From NCBI GenBank assembly GCA_015658495.1, contig DQOT01000182.1:1-17623 (forward strand): a stretch of 17,623 nucleotides of DNA, given 5' to 3'. The position numbers were made by a program, and so were the translations under genes. The notes below the pieces were generated by a model, which worked only from the letters and a program-made list of their open reading frames with translations, searched no databases and was not told the origin of the DNA. Below, piece by piece: positions 526-13,108 of the stretch (positions are counted from its first letter, which is position 1; each line of letters starts with the position of its first letter). This DNA is from Fidelibacterota bacterium. GTDB taxonomy: Bacteria > Fidelibacterota > Marinisomatia > Marinisomatales > UBA1611.

Positions 526-633
526 TTAAAGTACCCATGTCACTAACGTAACATAAATTAAAAGTAAGAGCGTGCATATGATCATAGATATAACCTGTGT
601 TTTTGTCATGCCTACTTTGGGTGCTTCAGACAT
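526..633 (-). CDS. 35-aa single-span membrane peptide
   Basis: The predicted 35-aa peptide has a polar N-terminus (MSEAPKVGMTKTQVIS) and one transmembrane helix at about 16-35 that runs to the C-terminus (ending TWVL). Its ATG at 633 uses the last A of the TAA stop of the 432-aa gene (TAATG), a junction typical of translational coupling. It is too short for most gene callers. The family is not recognised. The same TAATG arrangement recurs between the 48- and 56-aa genes, which strengthens the case that all three are translated together. A small subunit or assembly peptide of the membrane complex encoded further left is plausible, but this is inferred from context only. Confidence 0.55.
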   Translation of the reverse strand: MSEAPKVGMTKTQVISMIICTLLLLIYVTLVTWVL

Positions 634-1931
634 TATTTCGCTGCCCGTTTTGCTTTGACAATTGCTGCTTTGATCTTTCCGCGTAAAACTCTGTTATCCA
701 GAGCATTGACCTCATCCATATCGCCTTCCAATCCTTTGGCGATGAGTCGTTCCATCAATTGTTCATCTGTTTCGCCTGCATCTTCAGATCCACTTGTTGC
801 TTCCGGAATTTCCGGCATGGCTGGCCGATCAATCGTACCCCGTTTAATTTTAACGATCATGGCTTTGGCTTTTCCGCGGGTCACTTTATCCGTGTGAGCA
901 TTCACCGTATCCATGTCCCCTTCTAATCCTTTATTCACCAAATAAGCCACCAGGTCCTCCGGGGATAATGCAGCAATTCCACCGCCACTGGATGGTGCAG
1001 CGCCACCGGCAGGTTTGTCGGGCTTCGAGGGAGTAATTCCAGTTCGTTTTGCTTTCGTTATCCCAGCTTTTGCCATGCCGCGGATGGGCTTTTCAGGGAT
1101 GGCATTCACAAAATCCATGTTGCCTTCCAACCCCATGTTGATACCATAATCAATATAATCCTGTCGGGACGCAAATCCGCCAAATTGGTTTGCACCGCTA
1201 TCCACACTGCCTGCTTCATCTTCTTCGGTCTTAAATTCTACCTTGGGAACGACGGTATCTAATTTTTGCAGGATACGTGATTTGGCGGGCCAGTTAAATT
1301 GCGTTAAAAATGAAAAAAGACCTTTGGATGTCCGTTTGCAGGTAACCCAAACCCCAAACTCTGTTTCTTCAATGGTAAAATGAACATATTCGCTGGTCAG
1401 TGGAGATGTTCTGAAAGTGAATCCGAATTCCTTTTCTTTTTCCAAGGTCATGATCCGGCACTTGAAATAAGGGGCGATGGTCCTGGGACGGATCTTAAAA
1501 AATGATCCGGGAATTAAATCAAGATGGGTAAAAGAATACTTGTGAACATAGCGGTCAATATCAATAACAGGTAAGGCACGCTGAATACCATAGAACCACA
1601 CATTATACATATTCAAGGACGTGAGCATTTTCCACATGATCTCTTTGGTGGTGGAAAAATGATGTTTGACGATGCTTTCGCCGTCAAAGGGTTCCCAGGA
1701 TGTCCAACTTTCGCCTACACCATTTTTAGGAACAAGTGGAGCTTGAAGTTTGGCCTCGGGCTGTGCGATACCATCAAACTCAAGATCTTTCGATGAATAA
1801 TGCCGGATATTTCCGTCAGAAAATTCTATTTCATACTTGGTCGGGTAGAAATAGATCTTCTTTAGCGTGCCGCTTTCGCCTGTTTCGCGAATGGTACACT
1901 GCGTGCCCAGATTAATCCGGTTTAAATGCAT
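633..1931 (-). CDS. SRPBCC/START-like protein with three C-terminal GLEGxMDxVNA repeats
   Basis: This 432-aa soluble protein has three visible parts. Residues 8-53 form a small beta-rich domain (GTLKKIYFYPTKYEIEFSDG) resembling a Tudor/KOW/SH3-type barrel. Residues about 75-232 look like an SRPBCC/START (polyketide cyclase-like) ligand-binding fold, with an aromatic-rich opening around 88-115 and alternating strands to about 200. The C-terminal third carries three copies of a roughly 40-residue unit at 258-297, 326-365 and 391-430, each with a GLEG(N/D)MDxVNA core and ending in a basic KAKR/KIKR stretch, separated by Pro/Gly/Ser- or acid-rich linkers. There is no signal peptide or membrane span, so it is presumably cytoplasmic. 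An AAGGA motif at 1939-1943 on the minus strand supports this start. It is first in a leftward operon with three tiny membrane proteins. A lipid- or cofactor-binding assembly role is speculative. The ORF is convincing; its function is not known. Confidence 0.85.
   Translation of the reverse strand: MHLNRINLGTQCTIRETGESGTLKKIYFYPTKYEIEFSDGNIRHYSSKDLEFDGIAQPEAKLQAPLVPKNGVGESWTSWEPFDGESIVKHHFSTTKEIMWKMLTSLNMYNVWFYGIQRALPVIDIDRYVHKYSFTHLDLIPGSFFKIRPRTIAPYFKCRIMTLEKEKEFGFTFRTSPLTSEYVHFTIEETEFGVWVTCKRTSKGLFSFLTQFNWPAKSRILQKLDTVVPKVEFKTEEDEAGSVDSGANQFGGFASRQDYIDYGINMGLEGNMDFVNAIPEKPIRGMAKAGITKAKRTGITPSKPDKPAGGAAPSSGGGIAALSPEDLVAYLVNKGLEGDMDTVNAHTDKVTRGKAKAMIVKIKRGTIDRPAMPEIPEATSGSEDAGETDEQLMERLIAKGLEGDMDEVNALDNRVLRGKIKAAIVKAKRAAK
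642..1160 (-). repeat. Three in-frame tandem protein repeats (about 120 bp each)
   Basis: Three coding repeats lie at 1160-1041, 956-837 and 761-642 on the minus strand, encoding residues 258-297, 326-365 and 391-430 of the SRPBCC-like protein. The shared pattern is a hydrophobic helix start, GLEGxMDxVNA, about six variable residues, then RGxxKAxIxKxKR. They are separated by 28 and 25 residues of low-complexity linker. The protein pattern is much better conserved than the DNA, so the copies are old and under selection rather than a recent slippage product. Confidence 0.8.
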
Positions 1932-6168: not shown

Positions 6169-9100
6169 TTACAATTTCTTCACCAATCCACCATATTGTT
6201 TATCAATCTCAAATCCATGTCCAAAGAAGAATTTCTCCACATAAAAACCAACCGTAATGACTTCAACCCCCCGATGCTTCATCCGTTTATAAAAATCCTC
6301 CATCAATCGTTTGCTTAATGCGATCCCGCGATATTTTTCCCGAACAGCAACCCATTCCAAATGGATGCGATTCTTTTCCATGTTTTTCCAATACAATCCA
6401 CCGACCATTCGATTACGGGAATTAAACATAAACAGGAAATCGTGCTGTGCAGTAAAGGTCCCGGATAGAGATGATTCCGATAATAGGGAATGGAATTGAC
6501 CGATCTCCTTGGGCAAAAAGGGTGGACGAATTCGATAAACATGACCATCCATTCCTTCTGTTTGAAATACCAAATTCAACCGATTATCCTCGCCATGAGT
6601 TGTGGTGACCAACTCAACATAATCGGCAGCATCAACATGGGGGAAAAGCATCCGGGCCAAGTAAAATTTTTCTTTTTCGCTTAATTTTACATTGGACTGA
6701 ATTTGCGTGATCCGTTCCTGCAGATTCCATGGACTCAATTTCTCTTGTCTCATATCCTGGATCATGGACTGAAATTCATAAACCAAATCTGGATTTTTCT
6801 CTTTAAAACAGGTCATCATAAAAAATCGAACGCGTGTTTCCGGATATTCATTCATAAGCGAATCCAATTCATAATCCTGATATAATGCTTGGAGGATGGA
6901 TGCGCGGGCTTTCAAGGTTGCATGGGGATTCAGGTCCAGCCAACGCTCAAAACGAAGGGATGCAAAAACCACCGGTTTCGTCAAAACACCAAATTTTTCT
7001 ATATCATTCAGGAAGCGGTCAATTCGATCCACACTACAGCCCAAACTTTCAAATTTCTTTCGGATAGTTCGCTGTTTTAGATCCGTTTTGAGTTGGTTTA
7101 AAATTTCTTTCCCTTTTTTCATTTTCACGGCCTGGAGCGTGGCGGTAAAGATGACTTCCCAGTCAGACATATGCTTCAGTCCTTTATATTTTTCTTCTGT
7201 CCGAACGATATAATCCGTGAATAAGGATAAAAAATGGTCTGCCACTGATTGCGTTGGTTTTCGTCCTGAAATTGAGATCAACCGAGTGCCTGTGGAATAA
7301 TCATGTTGCGGGATCACAAGGTTTGCAGGTGAGGGCGGCTGAATCGATAATTTGAATTCGGTTCGGTTCCAGAATTCCTGATAAGCCTGAATCCCATTCC
7401 AAATAAAATGAAGCCACCGCATTTGCCACCGATCTACTTTTGACTCATCTTTGATATCATCTCTGTTCCGTTCAAGATAGGCTGTTAATGTCTCGCCGTG
7501 AATATATTCTTCTGTGTAAAGTTGATATTCCGGCCAATATCCACCAAAATTTTCCACCAGCGGTTTATCCTTAAATCCGGCTCCCATGTTGATAAGCCAT
7601 TTGATCTCATCTTCGAGAAAAGACCGTTCCCAGCCATCATTCAGATTCACAACAAGATTATGCGTTCCGAGAGATCGTGTACGAACCAAAATCCTGAATA
7701 CGCTTTTATTATTTCGTGACCCCAAATGGGTTATCCAGACACTGTTTTTTGGGATATCATTCAGTCCGACGATACAATTGGAAGAGAAGAGGAAGATCGA
7801 CTCCCGAATCATGGATGTTTCTTTAATGGCTTCCATCAGCCTCTTGCGGTGAATGGATTTTACATTCTCCTCAAAAGTGACCACATCATCCCAAGTGTAT
7901 TCTTCGCCTGTTTCACGATCGATGGTCAGTTTAGATGATTTACCGATCCAGGTTCGAAATCCTTTTATTAAAGCGTAATACGCCTTTTGGGCAGTGGAGA
8001 AAAGGGGTTTGGAAACATCAGAGATTTGCCACCAAATCAGTTCCGATCTGGCCCAGACAAATCGGGTGGGGTGTATCGTGCCGAAATCTGCAACCATGAG
8101 CAAAACGGTTTGAATGAATTCCTGGTCAACGGATCCAGATTCCTTGAGATTTAAATGGGCTTCCTGTAAATATTTGATAAAAGCACGATAATGTTCATCG
8201 CTAGCTCGATTGATATTGAAAGAAAATCCTTTTGACCGGTCCTGCTCTTTTTGAAAGAGGTAGGCATCCCGGAGCATGGAAACGAGGAAATCCCCAGATA
8301 AAAGCGGCGTGAGTGCTTCAATTAATTTGATGCGAAATGACGGATTTGAATGAGTTTGATAATTCAAAAAGGTATCTATCACAACGCCGGACCAATTCCC
8401 AAGATCACCATCAACGATTTCTGTTAATAGATTAAATACACCAGGATCGTCTGCCAAATATTGCCGAACTGTATAATGAAGATTATAAAGTACAATATCA
8501 TATTTATTGTCCGGGATGACAGGTGAAAAGGAAGTTCCAATCTTGGGCTCATGTATTTGAACAGCACTGTAATGTTCCGCTTCCTTCAACCGGAAAATGG
8601 GTTCCCCGGTAAAATCTGAAAAAGGAAAATTCCCCAACCAGAGCGATGGAGACTGAATAAATGCGTCAAATTCGAAAATATCAGAATCAATAGTGTAGGT
8701 AAAATCACCCACTTGGATCTTGGATCCAGCCCAGGATAATAACAGAGTTTCGGTTTGTCCCTTAATTGATACTTTCTGCCCATCCCACCCCACATTTGTT
8801 CGCACGGTTCCAATCTCACGCAATAGCCAATTCGGGACTCGAATCTCTTTTGAACCGGAATGAAGTGGCACATAATTTTTTTCATACAATGGTTCAATAA
8901 TGTGGGCAAAATTCTTTAATACATTTTTTCGATTAAATGTTTCTTTGGGTGTCAATTCACCTTTTTCTGCAGAGAAATCCCTTTTGATGATGACAAAATT
9001 CACGATCCGTTCAAACGGGGACAGGAAACTGTTCACCGATAAGATCATGGAACTGTACAAATCACGAATGGTTTGAGTGTCTGCCGTTTCAATATTAATG

Positions 9101-10743
9101 GGGGAATTTTTCGTATCAGGATAAATCAAAACTGTATTGAATTCCCGGCCATCGCCCACGAGAAAAATGGATTTGACTGAATCAAAATCCTGGAACAGAT
9201 TCTCGATCTTTTGGGGTGCAATGGTTTGACCACGACTGTTTTTGTAAATATCCTTTTTCCGATCGAGGATAAAATAATGCCCATCTTTCTCTTTAAAAAT
9301 ATCACCTGTGTGGAACCAGCCATCAACGAATACATCTGCATCATCATCCTTATAATATCCTTTCGTCACGTAGGATCCTTTCAGGCACAATTCTCCGTCG
9401 TCAGCGATTTTTAGGGTTATTCCCGGGAGAGCCGTTCCAACAGAATCGATCACATATTCAGCCGGTGGCGTCATGGTGATGCCCCCAGTGGCTTCAGTCA
9501 TGCCGTATCCGCTCAACACACTCAAACCATGGGTTTGGTAAAATTTGAAAATATCCGGATCTAAATAACCTGCAGCAGATAATCCCCATTTCAATTTTCC
9601 GCCGGTAACAGATTTTAATTTTTTCTCAATGGCTGCATTGTCCTCAGAATCTAGGTCCAATTGTTCTTCTAGCATTTCGTAGAGTTGAACCCAGCGCTTG
9701 GGAATACTGATAAAGATAGATGGCTTCACCATGGGAAAATCTTTCAACAATGAATTGAATGCGGGGGATTCCGCGAAAGAATAGGTGGCACCCCAAAAAA
9801 TACTGCCCATCAATTCAAAATAGCGTCCGAAGGTGTGGAAGAGTGGCAGGGAACACAGAAACGTATCATCCGATCCAAATTCAGGCAAAGCCAATGCACG
9901 GGCAAACCGTTTACTCATCATATTAATTTGATTAAACGTGATCCCTTTTGGATTTGCCGTGGAGCCCGAGGTGTACATAATGGTCTGGGTGCGATCCGTA
10001 GACACAAAAGACAATCGCTGTTCCACATCAAAATTTTGTGTCCGATCCCGATTTTCGAAAAATGTTTCCCAATCCATGACATTTCCATGAATCAGGTTTG
10101 GATCATCCACGGCGATCACAGAAATGTCATGGTTGTGATGAACTTCATTCCACAGGCGAATGGCCGTTTTTCCGCCCACAAAGAGGTGAGACACTTCTGA
10201 TTGATTTAAAATAAAAGATAAATGTTCGGATGTGGAATTCAGCGGAATGGGAATGACACGAAACCCAAAAGACAAGCAAGCCAGATCCACAAGAACACCA
10301 TTCAGTTGATTATGGGTAAGTAATCCGATCACCGGTGGCTCTTCCGGTTTCTCTAAAACAGAAAGTGCTTTTCCTGTGAATTGTATTTTTAACCAAAGTT
10401 TCTTATAGGATAATGTTGTTAGATCATCACCGTGAATCATATTAAAAACAGTTATATCGCCATACCGTTTTGCCCGTTGTTCAATCATGTATCCGGTATG
10501 GAATTGGGAAAGATCAATGAGTTGAACAACTCGTTCCAACCATTTTTCGCTTACCTTGGCTTGGGAGATTGTTTTTGCCACGGATTGAAAATGAGCCAGA
10601 TCAAGAAACTGATGCATAATATCCCGATCCGGTGATTGATCGATACAATCATTTACCAAGCGGATCAAAGCATCGGCGTTCAGTGTTCCCTTATTGGCTT
10701 GGGAAATGGTTTCGTTAATCCGGGTTTGGAGTCCTGTGTCCAT
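6169..10743 (-). CDS. Giant fusion: acyl-CoA synthetase-type ligase, degenerate kinase-like segment and GNAT acetyltransferase
   Basis: The 1524-aa protein is about 2.5 times the usual length of an acyl-CoA synthetase. Residues 1-80 are helical. Residues about 81-620 form an ANL adenylation module: the ATP loop YTSGSTANPKG (257-267), GYGMTEATGG (412-421), HTGD (478-481), DRKKDIYKNSRG (494-505) and GELTPKETFNRK (595-606), the A10 region. This module should activate a fatty or other carboxylic acid with ATP. Residues 630-720 are beta-rich and 740-970 mainly helical. Residues about 975-1180 resemble a degenerate kinase fold: hinge-like EEYIHGETLTAYLER, then QPPSPANLVI where active kinases have HxDxxxxN. 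A helical region follows, and about 1395-1524 is a GNAT acyltransferase with the acyl-CoA loop VAVREKYRGIALSKRL (1465-1480). No membrane span or signal peptide is seen. It stands alone, with no Shine-Dalgarno before its ATG. The natural idea is that the ligase makes an acyl-CoA or acyl-adenylate and the GNAT domain transfers it; substrate and acceptor are unknown. Confidence 0.85.
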   Translation of the reverse strand: MDTGLQTRINETISQANKGTLNADALIRLVNDCIDQSPDRDIMHQFLDLAHFQSVAKTISQAKVSEKWLERVVQLIDLSQFHTGYMIEQRAKRYGDITVFNMIHGDDLTTLSYKKLWLKIQFTGKALSVLEKPEEPPVIGLLTHNQLNGVLVDLACLSFGFRVIPIPLNSTSEHLSFILNQSEVSHLFVGGKTAIRLWNEVHHNHDISVIAVDDPNLIHGNVMDWETFFENRDRTQNFDVEQRLSFVSTDRTQTIMYTSGSTANPKGITFNQINMMSKRFARALALPEFGSDDTFLCSLPLFHTFGRYFELMGSIFWGATYSFAESPAFNSLLKDFPMVKPSIFISIPKRWVQLYEMLEEQLDLDSEDNAAIEKKLKSVTGGKLKWGLSAAGYLDPDIFKFYQTHGLSVLSGYGMTEATGGITMTPPAEYVIDSVGTALPGITLKIADDGELCLKGSYVTKGYYKDDDADVFVDGWFHTGDIFKEKDGHYFILDRKKDIYKNSRGQTIAPQKIENLFQDFDSVKSIFLVGDGREFNTVLIYPDTKNSPINIETADTQTIRDLYSSMILSVNSFLSPFERIVNFVIIKRDFSAEKGELTPKETFNRKNVLKNFAHIIEPLYEKNYVPLHSGSKEIRVPNWLLREIGTVRTNVGWDGQKVSIKGQTETLLLSWAGSKIQVGDFTYTIDSDIFEFDAFIQSPSLWLGNFPFSDFTGEPIFRLKEAEHYSAVQIHEPKIGTSFSPVIPDNKYDIVLYNLHYTVRQYLADDPGVFNLLTEIVDGDLGNWSGVVIDTFLNYQTHSNPSFRIKLIEALTPLLSGDFLVSMLRDAYLFQKEQDRSKGFSFNINRASDEHYRAFIKYLQEAHLNLKESGSVDQEFIQTVLLMVADFGTIHPTRFVWARSELIWWQISDVSKPLFSTAQKAYYALIKGFRTWIGKSSKLTIDRETGEEYTWDDVVTFEENVKSIHRKRLMEAIKETSMIRESIFLFSSNCIVGLNDIPKNSVWITHLGSRNNKSVFRILVRTRSLGTHNLVVNLNDGWERSFLEDEIKWLINMGAGFKDKPLVENFGGYWPEYQLYTEEYIHGETLTAYLERNRDDIKDESKVDRWQMRWLHFIWNGIQAYQEFWNRTEFKLSIQPPSPANLVIPQHDYSTGTRLISISGRKPTQSVADHFLSLFTDYIVRTEEKYKGLKHMSDWEVIFTATLQAVKMKKGKEILNQLKTDLKQRTIRKKFESLGCSVDRIDRFLNDIEKFGVLTKPVVFASLRFERWLDLNPHATLKARASILQALYQDYELDSLMNEYPETRVRFFMMTCFKEKNPDLVYEFQSMIQDMRQEKLSPWNLQERITQIQSNVKLSEKEKFYLARMLFPHVDAADYVELVTTTHGEDNRLNLVFQTEGMDGHVYRIRPPFLPKEIGQFHSLLSESSLSGTFTAQHDFLFMFNSRNRMVGGLYWKNMEKNRIHLEWVAVREKYRGIALSKRLMEDFYKRMKHRGVEVITVGFYVEKFFFGHGFEIDKQYGGLVKKL

Positions 10744-10821
10744 AGGAGAAATTAATGGAGAGTTTTTATGAAAATTGAAGACAAATTGATTTAAAACAAT
10801 GAAAAGCAGTGAATTCAGGAA

Positions 10822-10953
10822 ATGAGAATATTCTTAAAGAAAATAGGGTTTTGCATTTTTATTTCTGCCATGATTCTGGCAATAATTGGTCTGATTATTT
10901 TCTTTACCCAGATATTAATCGTAGAAGGCAATACGAAGGAGATCAAAAAATAA
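10822..10953 (+). CDS. Possible 43-aa single-span membrane peptide
   Basis: An open frame from an ATG at 10822 encodes 43 residues: a basic start (MRIFLKKIG), a hydrophobic helix at about 9-34, and a polar tail ending EGNTKEIKK. The positive-inside charge pattern is right for a small membrane protein. An AGGA motif (10817-10820) lies only one base before the ATG, too close for good initiation, and there is no operon partner. It may be a real small protein or the relic of one. Confidence 0.35.
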   Translation: MRIFLKKIGFCIFISAMILAIIGLIIFFTQILIVEGNTKEIKK

Positions 10954-11002
10954 AACATTGTAAAATATTTTAACCCCCTTTGGTCCTCCTTGTGTAGACC
11001 GG

Positions 11003-11050
11003 GGAGATGGTTGACAAGTGTTCGGAGACATGGTTAACACTTTACTAACC
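11003..11050. repeat. Short direct repeat resembling an insertion-sequence end
   Basis: GGAGATGGTTGACA begins at 11003, and a near copy, GGAGACATGGTTAACAC, begins at 11024, so the two units are spaced 21 bp apart. Repeated (A)TGGTTGACA-type motifs of this spacing are what I recall at the ends of some IS481-like elements, where transposase binds. No transposase gene or matching second end is visible in the window, so this would be a solo end or decayed relic. Confidence 0.3.
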
Positions 11051-11110
11051 TGGTACGAAAAATCAAAATAATGTGGTTTTAAAAAAAGTTCATCATCTTA
11101 AAATAAATAC

Positions 11111-11140
11111 TGCCTTTTTACCACTTATTTATATTATAAT
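11111..11140 (+). promoter_or_regulatory. Candidate promoter (-10 box) for the HD-GYP gene
   Basis: A perfect TATAAT at 11135-11140 in a strongly AT-rich stretch lies 36 bp before the ATG at 11177. The expected -35 position (TGCCTT, 11111-11116) matches poorly, so either an activator is needed or the match is chance. Confidence 0.3.
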
Positions 11141-11176
11141 TTTGTCAGTCCAAAAGGGACAACACAGTATAGAATC

Positions 11177-12778
11177 ATGGATGCATTAAACAGAATCAAA
11201 TTTTTAGAAGATCGTCTCCATCGTCTGAGCGAGATCGGCATGGCCCTTTCCACGGAAAAGAACACGGATCGGTTGTTCGAGATGATCCTGGAAGAAGCCA
11301 GGAAGATCACCTGCGCAGACGGCCGAACCCTCTATTCCATGAATAAGGAAGGGAACCTGAATTTTGAAATCATGTGTAACGATACCATGAATACAGTCAT
11401 GGGTGGCACCTCTGGAGTGGAGATTCCTTATTATCCAGTAAAACTTTGGATCGATAACCAAACACCAAACCAGAAAAATGTATCCGCTTATGTTGCCCTC
11501 TCAGGGAGAACAGTAAATATTGTGGATGCCTATGAGGAGGAAGGATTCGATTTCGAAGGGACCAAGAATTTTGATAAAAAATCCGGGTACCACTCAAAAT
11601 CATTTCTCACCGTACCGCTCAAGAATCATGAGAATGAGATCATTGGCGTTATGCAGCTTATCAACGCCCGGAATGATCACGGTGAGGTGATCTCATTCAA
11701 TGTGGAAATGCAGGAACAGGTTGAATCACTGGCATCCCAAGGTGCAGTGGCGTTAACGAATAAGCGATTGGTAGAGGAATTAAAAACACTCTTCGAAGCT
11801 TTTATTAAATTGATTGCTACCGCCATTGATAAAAAGTCGGAATACACAGGGGGGCATTGTAACCGTGTACCGATAATCACCATGATGCTGGCAGATGCGG
11901 TGGCTGAAATAACTGAAGGAAAATACAAAGATTTTTCCATGACGGCTGACGAACGATATGAACTATACATCGCAGCATGGCTCCACGATTGCGGGAAAGT
12001 TGCCACGCCGCCCCATGTGGTAGATAAGGGCACCAAATTAGAAACAATCTTTGACAGAATAGAATTAATTAGGACTAGAACCGAACTGTTGAAGCGGGAT
12101 GCGGAAATCGCTTTTTTAAAACGACAGTTGAATGGGCAGGCCTCAAACAATTTTGACGATGAATTCAATAAAACGATCCGGCAGATTGAAGAAAATATGA
12201 AATTTTTAGAAGGCTGTAATGTTGGTGGCGAATTCATGAAACAGGAACTCCGGGAACGGGTCAAATCCATCGCTAAACAAAAGGTCAAATTATACGGGAA
12301 TGATCGGGATTTTCTGTCTGAAGAAGAGGTTAACAATTTGAATATCCCTAAGGGGACTTTGCTTCCTGAAGAAAGGGAAATCATTAACGATCATATTGTG
12401 ATCACTATCGAAATGCTGGAGCAATTACCCTATCCGAAACACCTGAAAAATGTACCGGAGTTCGCTGGCGGTCATCATGAGAAGATGGACGGTACCGGAT
12501 ATCCGAAAGGATTGAAGGCGAAACAAATGTCCACCCAGGCAAAAATGATGGCTATTGCGGATATTTATGAAGCACTCACAGCAGCAGATCGGCCTTACAA
12601 GGAAGGGAAAAAATTATCAGCTGCCATGCGTATCATGGGATTCATGAAAAATGATTACCACATCGATGTGGACTTGTTTGAGATCTTCGTGAGATCCGGT
12701 GTTTATAAAAAATATGCGGAAGAGCATGTGGCAAAAACACAAATTGATGAGGTAGATGAAGCATCCGTTTTGGGGTAA
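11177..12778 (+). CDS. GAF/HD-GYP domain cyclic-di-GMP phosphodiesterase
   Basis: The 533-aa protein probably hydrolyses the second messenger cyclic di-GMP in response to a signal bound by its sensor domain. A short helix (1-25) leads into a GAF domain at about 30-195, ending in the typical FLTVPLKNHENEIIGVMQLI strand pair. The HD-GYP domain follows: H227 in GGHCNR, the metal-binding H270-D271 in AWLHDCGKV, H406 in NDHI, then HHEKMDGTGYPKGL (433-446) with the GYP triad, IADIYEALTAADRPY (460-474) and a C-terminal helix bundle. All metal ligands I can place are present, so it should be active. Between HDCGK and NDH there is about 130 residues instead of the 30 or so in the minimal domain, largely charged, predicted coiled-coil helices; a known subfamily has this insertion. 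There is no membrane span, so it is cytoplasmic. A small gene follows after 3 nt. Confidence 0.9.
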   Translation: MDALNRIKFLEDRLHRLSEIGMALSTEKNTDRLFEMILEEARKITCADGRTLYSMNKEGNLNFEIMCNDTMNTVMGGTSGVEIPYYPVKLWIDNQTPNQKNVSAYVALSGRTVNIVDAYEEEGFDFEGTKNFDKKSGYHSKSFLTVPLKNHENEIIGVMQLINARNDHGEVISFNVEMQEQVESLASQGAVALTNKRLVEELKTLFEAFIKLIATAIDKKSEYTGGHCNRVPIITMMLADAVAEITEGKYKDFSMTADERYELYIAAWLHDCGKVATPPHVVDKGTKLETIFDRIELIRTRTELLKRDAEIAFLKRQLNGQASNNFDDEFNKTIRQIEENMKFLEGCNVGGEFMKQELRERVKSIAKQKVKLYGNDRDFLSEEEVNNLNIPKGTLLPEEREIINDHIVITIEMLEQLPYPKHLKNVPEFAGGHHEKMDGTGYPKGLKAKQMSTQAKMMAIADIYEALTAADRPYKEGKKLSAAMRIMGFMKNDYHIDVDLFEIFVRSGVYKKYAEEHVAKTQIDEVDEASVLG

Positions 12779-12781
12779 AGA

Positions 12782-13108
12782 ATGAATTTAATTTCCTTAT
12801 CAAAATACGAACTGAGAGATCAATTAATTTCCCTGATGGATACAGTGGTACACCATCTGGAAACAGATCCGGATGTGGATAAATTCCTGGATGAGACAGA
12901 TCTATTTGATGAGTGGGAAAAAGTGCTCCCGGATGCGGAATATCCCATTTTTATCATGGCCGTATTGAATAATACCCGACGGGATTCCATTATGGATACA
13001 ATTATGGATGCGATATTGGAAAAGGGCGAAAGTGCCGAAATTCCTGAAAAAAATGTATCCGAAGCCAAACCGGCACGGTCCCACGTGGGAGAACACCCTT
13101 TCAATTGA
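12782..13108 (+). CDS. Hypothetical 108-aa acidic helical protein
   Basis: The protein is unrecognised. It is acidic and predicted helical: an N-terminal amphipathic region (LSKYELRDQLISLMDTVVHH), a motif rich in Asp and Trp (FLDETDLFDEWEKVLPDAEY), a hydrophobic stretch around 55-66, DTIMDAILEKG near 72-82, and a disordered basic tail. There is no signal peptide or transmembrane helix. Its ATG lies 3 nt after the HD-GYP stop, so the two are almost certainly co-transcribed and it may be a partner of that phosphodiesterase; this link is inferred from position only. A larger antisense reading frame overlaps it but has no protein-like features. Confidence 0.7.
   Translation: MNLISLSKYELRDQLISLMDTVVHHLETDPDVDKFLDETDLFDEWEKVLPDAEYPIFIMAVLNNTRRDSIMDTIMDAILEKGESAEIPEKNVSEAKPARSHVGEHPFN

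What the first reader, a model, noticed from the sequence alone, without database searches (positions are those of the whole stretch)
6169..10743. 1524-aa ligase-to-GNAT fusion protein in a single gene
An ANL adenylation module (motifs at residues 257-267, 412-421, 478-481 and 494-505) is fused, through some 770 residues of unassigned sequence, to a GNAT domain at the C-terminus. Acyl activation and acyl transfer on one chain suggests a self-contained acylating machine, perhaps for lipids, peptides or proteins, without a carrier domain I can see. Motif calls are direct; the coupled reaction is inference.
Basis: partly seen in the sequence, partly recalled or inferred. Interest (0 to 1): 0.75.

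Follow-up and report, generated by a model that had tools for sequence, protein, structure and literature searches.

The report
Ancient ligase–acetyltransferase fusion protein family
A marine bacterium carries a very long protein that joins an acid-activating enzyme to an acetyltransferase-like tail; the same one-gene design recurs in distantly related bacteria, so it is a real but uncharacterised kind of protein, possibly tied to central carbon metabolism.

Summary
[quoted passage not shown] It is not a local fusion. Single ORFs of about 1500-1790 aa with the same order occur in Neomarinimicrobiota, Ignavibacteria, Calditrichota, KSB1 and Acidobacteriota, and a second subfamily reaches further. 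ANL and GNAT distances correlate (r = 0.93), so the parts evolved together. The coupled reaction is unproven. Other ANL motif residues are kept, but the catalytic A10 lysine position is Thr/Ser in 325 of 325 rows, with an invariant Lys two residues earlier. The GNAT's best solved match is Gcn5 histone acetyltransferase, yet the acetyl-CoA loop consensus is met in 0 of 114 rows of the window's clade (74 of 136 in subfamily II). Part of the 770-residue middle is weakly protein-kinase-like without catalytic residues. The gene lies near citrate synthase in several arrangements in other phyla, not in the Neomarinimicrobiota regions examined. My best guess is a ligase-fed protein acyltransferase acting on central metabolism, uncertain for this clade. 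Structure prediction was never accepted.

The parts
6169..10743 (-). whole gene, 1524 aa plus stop
   Evidence: same architecture in 325 family rows of at least 1400 aa (the rows include near-duplicates, 231 remain at 85% identity)
10489..10743 (-). residues 1-85, N-terminal segment, no known domain, least conserved part
   Evidence: mean identity 0.21
9352..10482 (-). AMP-binding (ANL) large domain, residues 88-464
   Evidence: PF00501 E 1.4e-52; nearest solved chains are carboxylic acid reductases, adenylation part
8878..9237 (-). ANL small C-terminal domain, residues 503-622
   Evidence: PF23562 E 2.9e-12
8938..8946 (-). residues 600-602 (K-E-T): invariant K600 and Thr at the canonical A10 lysine position 602
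7879..8856 (-). residues 630-955, unassigned; starts with a conserved PxW..RE.G....W / LWLGN segment
7144..7881 (-). residues 955-1200, weakly protein-kinase-like, catalytic residues absent
6562..7143 (-). residues 1201-1394, unassigned, conserved
6172..6561 (-). GNAT domain, residues 1395-1524
   Evidence: PF13673, PF00583 above cut-off; family profile hits Gcn5, E 2e-11
6313..6330 (-). residues 1472-1477 RGIALS at the place of GNAT motif A (R/Q-x-x-G-x-G/A); both Gly replaced
   Evidence: consensus as given in PMC8556138
10744..11176 (.). 433-base divergent intergenic region shared with the GAF/HD gene
   Evidence: promoter-like matches 4 found against 2.5 expected in 10600-11300, not informative
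11177..12778 (+). GAF plus HD domain protein, divergent neighbour; homologues in 26 of 72 neighbourhoods (window included)

Best explanation
This is one member of an ancient, uncharacterised family of single-chain proteins built as N-segment, AMP-forming acid ligase, a long middle containing a degenerate kinase-like region, and a Gcn5-like GNAT. Shown here: the architecture, its conservation, and the co-divergence of its parts. Inferred: the ligase adenylates a carboxylic acid (using K600 in place of the usual A10 lysine) and makes an acyl-CoA, and the middle acts as a non-catalytic scaffold or sensor. Also inferred: the GNAT uses acyl-CoA to modify a lysine or amine on a protein of central carbon metabolism, with citrate synthase the best candidate outside Neomarinimicrobiota. 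In the window's clade the GNAT acetyl-CoA loop is altered, so transfer there may use another donor mode or may have become regulatory.
For: Single-ORF architecture over phyla. ANL-GNAT distance correlation 0.93; the 8 paralogous ligases fall on one side of a branch from the 93 family ANL domains, SH-like support 100. ANL residues K266, E417, D481, R495, K600, R605 at 323, 324, 325, 325, 325, 325 of 325. GNAT profile best PDB match Gcn5, E 2e-11. Citrate synthase in 28 of 138 regions (27 distinct, L090 and L135 being the same): same strand upstream in records of the Ignavibacteria group (titled Ignavibacteriae, Melioribacteraceae, Bacteroidetes or only bacterium, or unnamed), convergent in Acidobacteriota and in KSB1 L073 (another citrate synthase type), divergent in KSB1-phylum L245. 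In Neomarinimicrobiota all 13 examined gene-bearing genomes have the eukaryote-type citrate synthase, and 5 of 7 examined genomes without the gene have the other type.
Against: Citrate synthase is absent from 110 of 138 regions, among them every Neomarinimicrobiota region examined and 14 of 14 Calditrichota-phylum regions, some with short flanks; none was found in the window's own 82%-complete assembly. GNAT motif A met in 0 of 114 clade rows. The canonical A10 lysine is replaced in all rows. The citrate-synthase-type association is small (family-level Fisher p 0.035), not corrected for descent, from 20 genomes chosen out of 36, and two gene-less genomes also have the eukaryote type. Subfamily II has other neighbours, and by my count 27 of the 120 proteins listed carry the ligase but no precomputed GNAT domain. 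No structure or activity.
Confidence: 0.33

Rival explanations
1. In this clade the protein is an active acid-CoA ligase whose GNAT-like and kinase-like parts are catalytically dead regulatory modules, for example binding acyl-CoA or the ligase's own lysine as feedback.
For: The ANL catalytic positions stay fixed while the GNAT motif A pattern [QRK]xxGx[GA] is met in 0 of 114 clade rows (11 of 114 if Ser is allowed last). Position 1507, Tyr in 69 of 70 rows of group B, is there Phe in 36, Tyr in 36 and Ser in 33. The GNAT domain is nevertheless as conserved as the ANL (0.62 against 0.61 mean identity), as expected of a retained binding module.
Against: G1475 is kept in 132 of 136 subfamily II rows, where motif A is partly intact (74 of 136), so dead-module status would be specific to some lineages. 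Gcn5-type similarity.
Confidence: 0.27
2. PatZ-like sensor: the synthetase part no longer makes acyl-CoA but binds it and controls a GNAT lysine acetyltransferase, as the inactive NDP-forming domain does in type I and II bacterial GNATs.
For: Same overall logic (large synthetase-like part plus terminal GNAT) in PMC8556138 (passages); Gcn5-like GNAT; displaced A10 lysine.
Against: Here the synthetase is AMP-forming, with P-loop, A5, A7 and A8 residues invariant or nearly so, unlike the dead NDP-forming domain.
Confidence: 0.2
3. Small-molecule or lipid N-acyltransferase: the ligase loads a fatty or other acid and the GNAT places it on an amino acid, polyamine or lipid head group.
For: ANL half matches long-chain acyl-CoA ligases and carboxylic acid reductase. 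Beta-oxidation genes nearby in KSB1 L078, with homologues of two of them near five other loci, L054, L057, L061, L062 and L077. Squalene-synthesis genes lie upstream in ten loci of the Ignavibacteria group.
Against: The GNAT profile is nearest Gcn5-type proteins; amino-acid acetyltransferases rank lower (6e-5). The neighbour sets differ between phyla.
Confidence: 0.15
4. Chance or assembly-made fusion of two unrelated genes.
For: The assembly is fragmented (388 contigs, 82% complete).
Against: The same single ORF recurs in independent assemblies and phyla (49 of 72 loci closed), with conserved synteny in about 20 relatives.
Confidence: 0.01

Closest known systems
Type I/II bacterial GNAT lysine acetyltransferases (PatZ/Pat of enterics, PatA of Streptomyces)
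   Same: Large acyl-CoA-synthetase-type region and a GNAT domain on one chain; central-metabolism connection
   Different: Theirs is an inactive NDP-forming synthetase domain (PMC8556138, passages); here it is an AMP-forming ANL with conserved motifs, plus a 770-residue middle
AMP-forming ligases of the carboxylic acid reductase / long-chain acyl-CoA synthetase type
   Same: PF00501 plus PF23562; best solved matches 5mso and 6oz1
   Different: No carrier or reductase found; A10 lysine position is Thr/Ser with an invariant Lys two residues earlier
Gcn5/PCAF-type histone (lysine) acetyltransferases
   Same: GNAT family profile best match 1qst, E 2e-11, over 90 positions
   Different: Motif A G-x-G/A lost in the window's clade; the catalytic Glu of Gcn5 (recalled) aligns with a non-acidic position, a mostly acidic position (E1463 here; E or D in 320 of 325 rows) lying two residues on
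AcuA/AcsA pair of Bacillus (separate GNAT and AMP-forming acetyl-CoA synthetase)
   Same: Pairs a GNAT with an AMP-forming ligase (PMC11255334, start of abstract in search listings)
   Different: Two separate proteins; here one chain with other domains
Acyl-ACP synthetase / phospholipid acyltransferase fusions (Aas type)
   Same: ANL fused to an acyltransferase; NCBIfam matches to the ANL half only, far below cut-off
   Different: No PlsC-type domain found among Pfam matches

Membership tests
ANL (AMP-forming) superfamily | A3 P-loop, A5, A7 Asp and A8 Arg | tested here: met
ANL (AMP-forming) superfamily | Catalytic Lys at the canonical A10 position | tested here: not met
   T602 in the window, T/S in 325 of 325 rows; K600 two residues earlier in 325 of 325; 8 of 8 fetched paralogous ligases (some near-identical to each other) have K at the canonical place. 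Importance of this Lys: PMC8388817 (passages)
ANL (AMP-forming) superfamily | Adenylation activity | not testable with these tools
   needs an assay
GNAT superfamily | Profile match above curated cut-off | tested here: met
   PF13673 26.9 bits (cut-off 23.6), PF00583 24.6 (20.7)
GNAT superfamily | Motif A R/Q-x-x-G-x-G/A | tested here: not met
   RGIALS in the window; by [QRK]xxGx[GA] 0 of 114 clade rows, 8 of 70 group B, 4 of 5 group C, 74 of 136 subfamily II; with Ser also allowed last 11, 29, 5 and 84
[quoted passage not shown]
   AMP-forming PF00501/PF23562 instead
Carboxylic acid reductase | Carrier and NAD(P)-reductase domains after the ANL | tested here: not met
   no such Pfam family at E <= 1
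Aas-type acyltransferase-ligase fusion | PlsC-type acyltransferase domain | tested here: not met
   no such Pfam family at E <= 1
Protein kinase-like fold | Kinase profile match and catalytic HRD/DFG residues | tested here: inconclusive
   hhalign against 24 protein kinase domains: 25.3 (subfamily I) and 18.7 (II, cleaned); 0 of 120 and 1 of 120 scrambled or reversed controls reach them; probabilities only 5.4% and 0.8%. Cleaned subfamily II scored 20.9 against the APH family over another stretch, without controls. No significant Pfam or PDB match. Catalytic Asp absent by alignment

The most novel reading that the evidence does not exclude
A self-supplying protein acylating machine: an AMP-forming ligase with a relocated catalytic lysine makes acyl-CoA on the spot for a Gcn5-like acyltransferase on the same chain, organised by a pseudokinase-like scaffold, and tunes citrate synthase. 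It would be a new architectural type of bacterial lysine acyltransferase spread over several phyla.
Probability: 0.13. Interest if true: 0.8.

Novelty: new variant of a known kind. Interest (0 to 1): 0.5.

Why it matters
In the review passages that I read, bacterial GNATs fused to an acyl-CoA synthetase part have an NDP-forming, inactive one (PMC8556138). A broad family with an AMP-forming ligase, a displaced catalytic lysine in every row examined and a large uncharacterised middle would extend both enzyme families. It also gives a concrete test: is eukaryote-type citrate synthase acylated by it? Some members lie on contigs of 3.6-6.0 Mb, close to whole-genome size, so an experimental host may exist.

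Tried and rejected
Rejected: assembly artefact. Defence function: no PADLOC match for three members. Carrier-dependent (CAR/NRPS) and PlsC fusions: no such domains. The Chromatiaceae hit L103 is a 66-residue match inside a 157-aa open frame unlike the family (its tail looks like a membrane-protein end, my reading); I took it as chance and dropped it from later neighbour counts. Pfam NB-ARC in 4 of 15 members of A3, best 0.0012, was not pursued. The kinase idea: the first PDB hint was JAK2 pseudokinase at E about 0.5, behind a colony stimulating factor chain at 0.41, and both were gone with the wider profile (no hits). My first subfamily II set for hhalign wrongly held 4 subfamily I rows (P0013, P0017, P0047, P0077; found). 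Cleaned, its score fell from 22.7 to 18.7 and 1 of 60 shuffled controls reached it, so I call the kinase likeness weak. One of the four, P0077, was also mislabelled in the trees; with it corrected both trees separate the two subfamilies. ORF-based neighbour lists missed some citrate synthase genes, for example the one of L135 found, apparently under longer antisense frames in GC-rich DNA; (tblastn) replaces them. Promoter scan uninformative. Paper searches for the architecture found no description (only titles and abstract starts seen, of the listed papers); some searches gave background only.

Full report
1. What is there. The ORF at 6169-10743 reads on the minus strand as 1524 aa from an ATG. 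Pfam gives PF00501 at 88-464, PF23562 at 503-622 and GNAT at 1411-1498, all above curated cut-offs. The best solved relatives of the ligase half are carboxylic acid reductases (5mso, E 2.1e-28; 6oz1, 1.4e-26). Residues 630-1395 match no Pfam family at E <= 1 in the window's protein, and over 15 members nothing that I count as significant (best NB-ARC, 0.0012, with 4 members matching).

2. It is an old family, not a local fusion. A search with residues 630-1524 found 276 proteins, of which 120 were listed. Of these 113 exceed 1450 aa, and by my count 11 have no precomputed GNAT domain, though the match covers the C-terminal part. That search admits only proteins of 0.55-1.75 times the query length and scored a capped candidate list, so it cannot show a much shorter stand-alone middle. 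Six-frame genome searches have no such limit. In genome contigs 72 loci were found, in records titled Neomarinimicrobiota/Marinimicrobia, Calditrichota/Caldithrix, Ignavibacteria/Melioribacteraceae, KSB1, FCB group, Bacteroidetes, Chlorobiota, Acidobacteria and Thermoanaerobaculales, some only bacterium. Of the 72, 49 hold a closed single ORF of 1525-1763 aa with the ligase P-loop motif. Of the other 23, 21 run off a contig end (the rejected L103 and L101, whose match lies in two frames, among them). The two closed exceptions are L050 (795 aa, beginning 50 bases into its contig) and L089 (1306 aa, without the motif). Tallies for the middle profile: 87 of 245 genomes of the window's phylum, 24 of 197 of the class of L081's genome (one of these a 97-aa frame at E 8.5e-4, likely chance), 33 of 347 of the phylum of L074's genome, titled Acidobacteria, 10 of 82 of L073's phylum, titled KSB1, 22 of 40 of L071's phylum, titled Calditrichota. 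So the gene is common in some groups and absent from most genomes in others. Weak hits led to a second subfamily of the same length and architecture. Its database names include Aminicenantes, Zixibacteria, Kapaibacterium, Krumholzibacteria, Bacteroidales and Lysobacterales (120 of 136 hits listed, 27 of them by my count with the ligase but no precomputed GNAT domain).

3. The parts belong together. On 231 rows (85% dereplicated from 325), pairwise distances of the ANL and GNAT segments correlate at 0.93, and ANL with the kinase-like segment at 0.93. A FastTree of 93 family ANL domains and 8 paralogous ligases from the same phylum puts the paralogues on one side of a branch with SH-like support 100. 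With one mislabelled row corrected, the two subfamilies separate in both the ANL and the C-terminal tree (SH-like support only, and long branches are flagged in the C-terminal tree).

4. Ligase: kept, with a displaced lysine. P-loop, A5, A7 and A8 residues are invariant or nearly so. The A10 region is the surprise. Ungapped alignment to two CAR structures and to 8 of 8 paralogues places residue 602 at the canonical catalytic lysine. In this family it is Thr in 192 and Ser in 133 of 325 rows, while K600 and R605 are found in 325 of 325, giving the motif ELTxKx[ST]xxR. The role of the canonical A10 lysine is described in PMC8388817 (passages). That K600 takes over that role is inference, and I did not survey how rare the motif is among all ligases.

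5. GNAT: Gcn5-like, eroded in this clade. A profile of 18 family GNAT segments has Tetrahymena Gcn5 as best PDB match (2e-11; the next distinct protein 3e-6). Motif A (R/Q-x-x-G-x-G/A, PMC8556138, passages) reads RGIALS in the window. By the pattern [QRK]xxGx[GA] it is met in 0 of 114 rows of at least 47% identity to the window's protein, 8 of 70 rows of 33-47%, 4 of 5 other subfamily I rows and 74 of 136 subfamily II rows (11, 29, 5 and 84 if Ser is allowed last); the first Gly is kept in 132 of those 136. Yet in the window's clade the GNAT is as conserved as the ligase (0.62 against 0.61; 68 rows), so it is not decaying. This weakens, and does not exclude, acyl transfer in the window's own protein.

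6. Middle. Residues 955-1200 give the only hint of a known fold. A 15-row profile touched the JAK2 pseudokinase at E about 0.5, behind an unrelated chain at 0.41, and a wider profile found nothing. Profile-profile comparison with 24 bacterial protein kinase domains aligned the hinge region in both subfamilies in the same register, reaching the catalytic loop in subfamily II, where PxN is kept and the HRD Asp is not. Scores were 25.3 and, after removing four misplaced rows, 18.7; 0 and 1 of 120 scrambled or reversed controls reached them. The hhalign probabilities are only 5.4% and 0.8%, and subfamily II scored 20.9 against the APH family over a different stretch. I treat kinase likeness as a lead.

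7. Neighbours. In the window the gene stands alone on its strand, with a GAF/HD gene divergent and cytochrome-oxidase assembly genes (COX15, SCO1, UbiA-type, DUF420) convergent. The arrangement recurs in about 20 relatives but, being non-co-directional, says little. In other phyla citrate synthase recurs: 28 of 138 regions, of which 27 are distinct (the 138 hold at least four genomes fetched twice); of the 89 regions with at least 2.5 kb on both sides, 22 have it within 6 kb. Arrangements differ: same strand upstream, 79 bases to 3 kb away, in the Ignavibacteria group (some records titled Bacteroidetes or only bacterium, some unnamed); convergent, 9 bases to 5.8 kb away, in six distinct Acidobacteriota regions; convergent with a different citrate synthase subtype in KSB1 L073; divergent in L245 of the KSB1 phylum. 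None of the Neomarinimicrobiota regions examined (those of families f30 and f31 were not) and none of 14 Calditrichota-phylum regions show it. In the window's phylum 13 of 13 examined genomes with the gene have the eukaryote-type enzyme and 5 of 7 without it have the other type (these 20 are a chosen subset of the 36 genomes with a citrate synthase). By taxonomic family this is 8 of 8 against 2 of 5, Fisher p 0.035, uncorrected for descent. The window's own assembly, 82% complete, shows no citrate synthase, while 36 of 41 genomes in that set do. In one Acidobacteriota group of subfamily II the neighbours are instead class I fumarase, methylaspartate mutase E, GlmL, AtuA-like and DUF4387 genes. 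A common theme may be carboxylate and central carbon metabolism; beta-oxidation and squalene genes in some loci leave room for others.

8. Reading. I favour a ligase-fed protein acyltransferase tied to central metabolism (0.33). Close behind are an active ligase with dead regulatory modules in this clade (0.27) and a PatZ-like sensor (0.20). Architecturally it resembles type I GNATs (PMC8556138) but fails their defining feature, an NDP-forming synthetase domain. Public annotation names members only generically where a name is shown, as AMP-binding protein, long-chain acyl-CoA synthetase, GNAT family N-acetyltransferase or hypothetical protein. Six searches of the held papers found no description of this architecture.

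Noticed in passing
window 633-1931 (-): 432-aa protein without a Pfam match whose C-terminal half holds three tandem repeats of roughly 35-40 residues (GLEGxMDxVNA...RGxxKAxIxKxKR, my reading of the translation); homologues in 16 of 72 neighbourhoods, window included.
   Followed up: no
window 12782-13108 (+): 108-aa protein with no Pfam match, beside the GAF/HD gene; homologues in 19 of 72 neighbourhoods, window included.
   Followed up: no
L153-L162 (subfamily II, Acidobacteriota): In several of these loci the fusion gene lies near class I fumarase, methylaspartate mutase E, GlmL, AtuA-like, DUF4387 and a possible P-loop protein, suggesting a methylaspartate-type glutamate pathway.
   Followed up: partly
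L081, L069 and other Ignavibacteria-group loci: HpnC, a second HpnC/D-like synthase and HpnE squalene genes sit upstream of citrate synthase and the fusion gene in ten loci, with a CTP synthase-like gene (PyrG by my reading, not scanned) downstream in ten.
   Followed up: partly
Neomarinimicrobiota genomes G034, G036, G038, G047, G048 against 13 others: Two citrate synthase subtypes replace each other within the phylum; the eukaryote-like type goes with the fusion gene in the genomes examined.
   Followed up: partly
L100 3114-7637 (+): 1508-aa protein directly upstream of the fusion gene in a Calditrichaceae record, no NCBIfam match at 1e-10; another large protein family sits upstream in 6 of 27 regions.
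   Followed up: no
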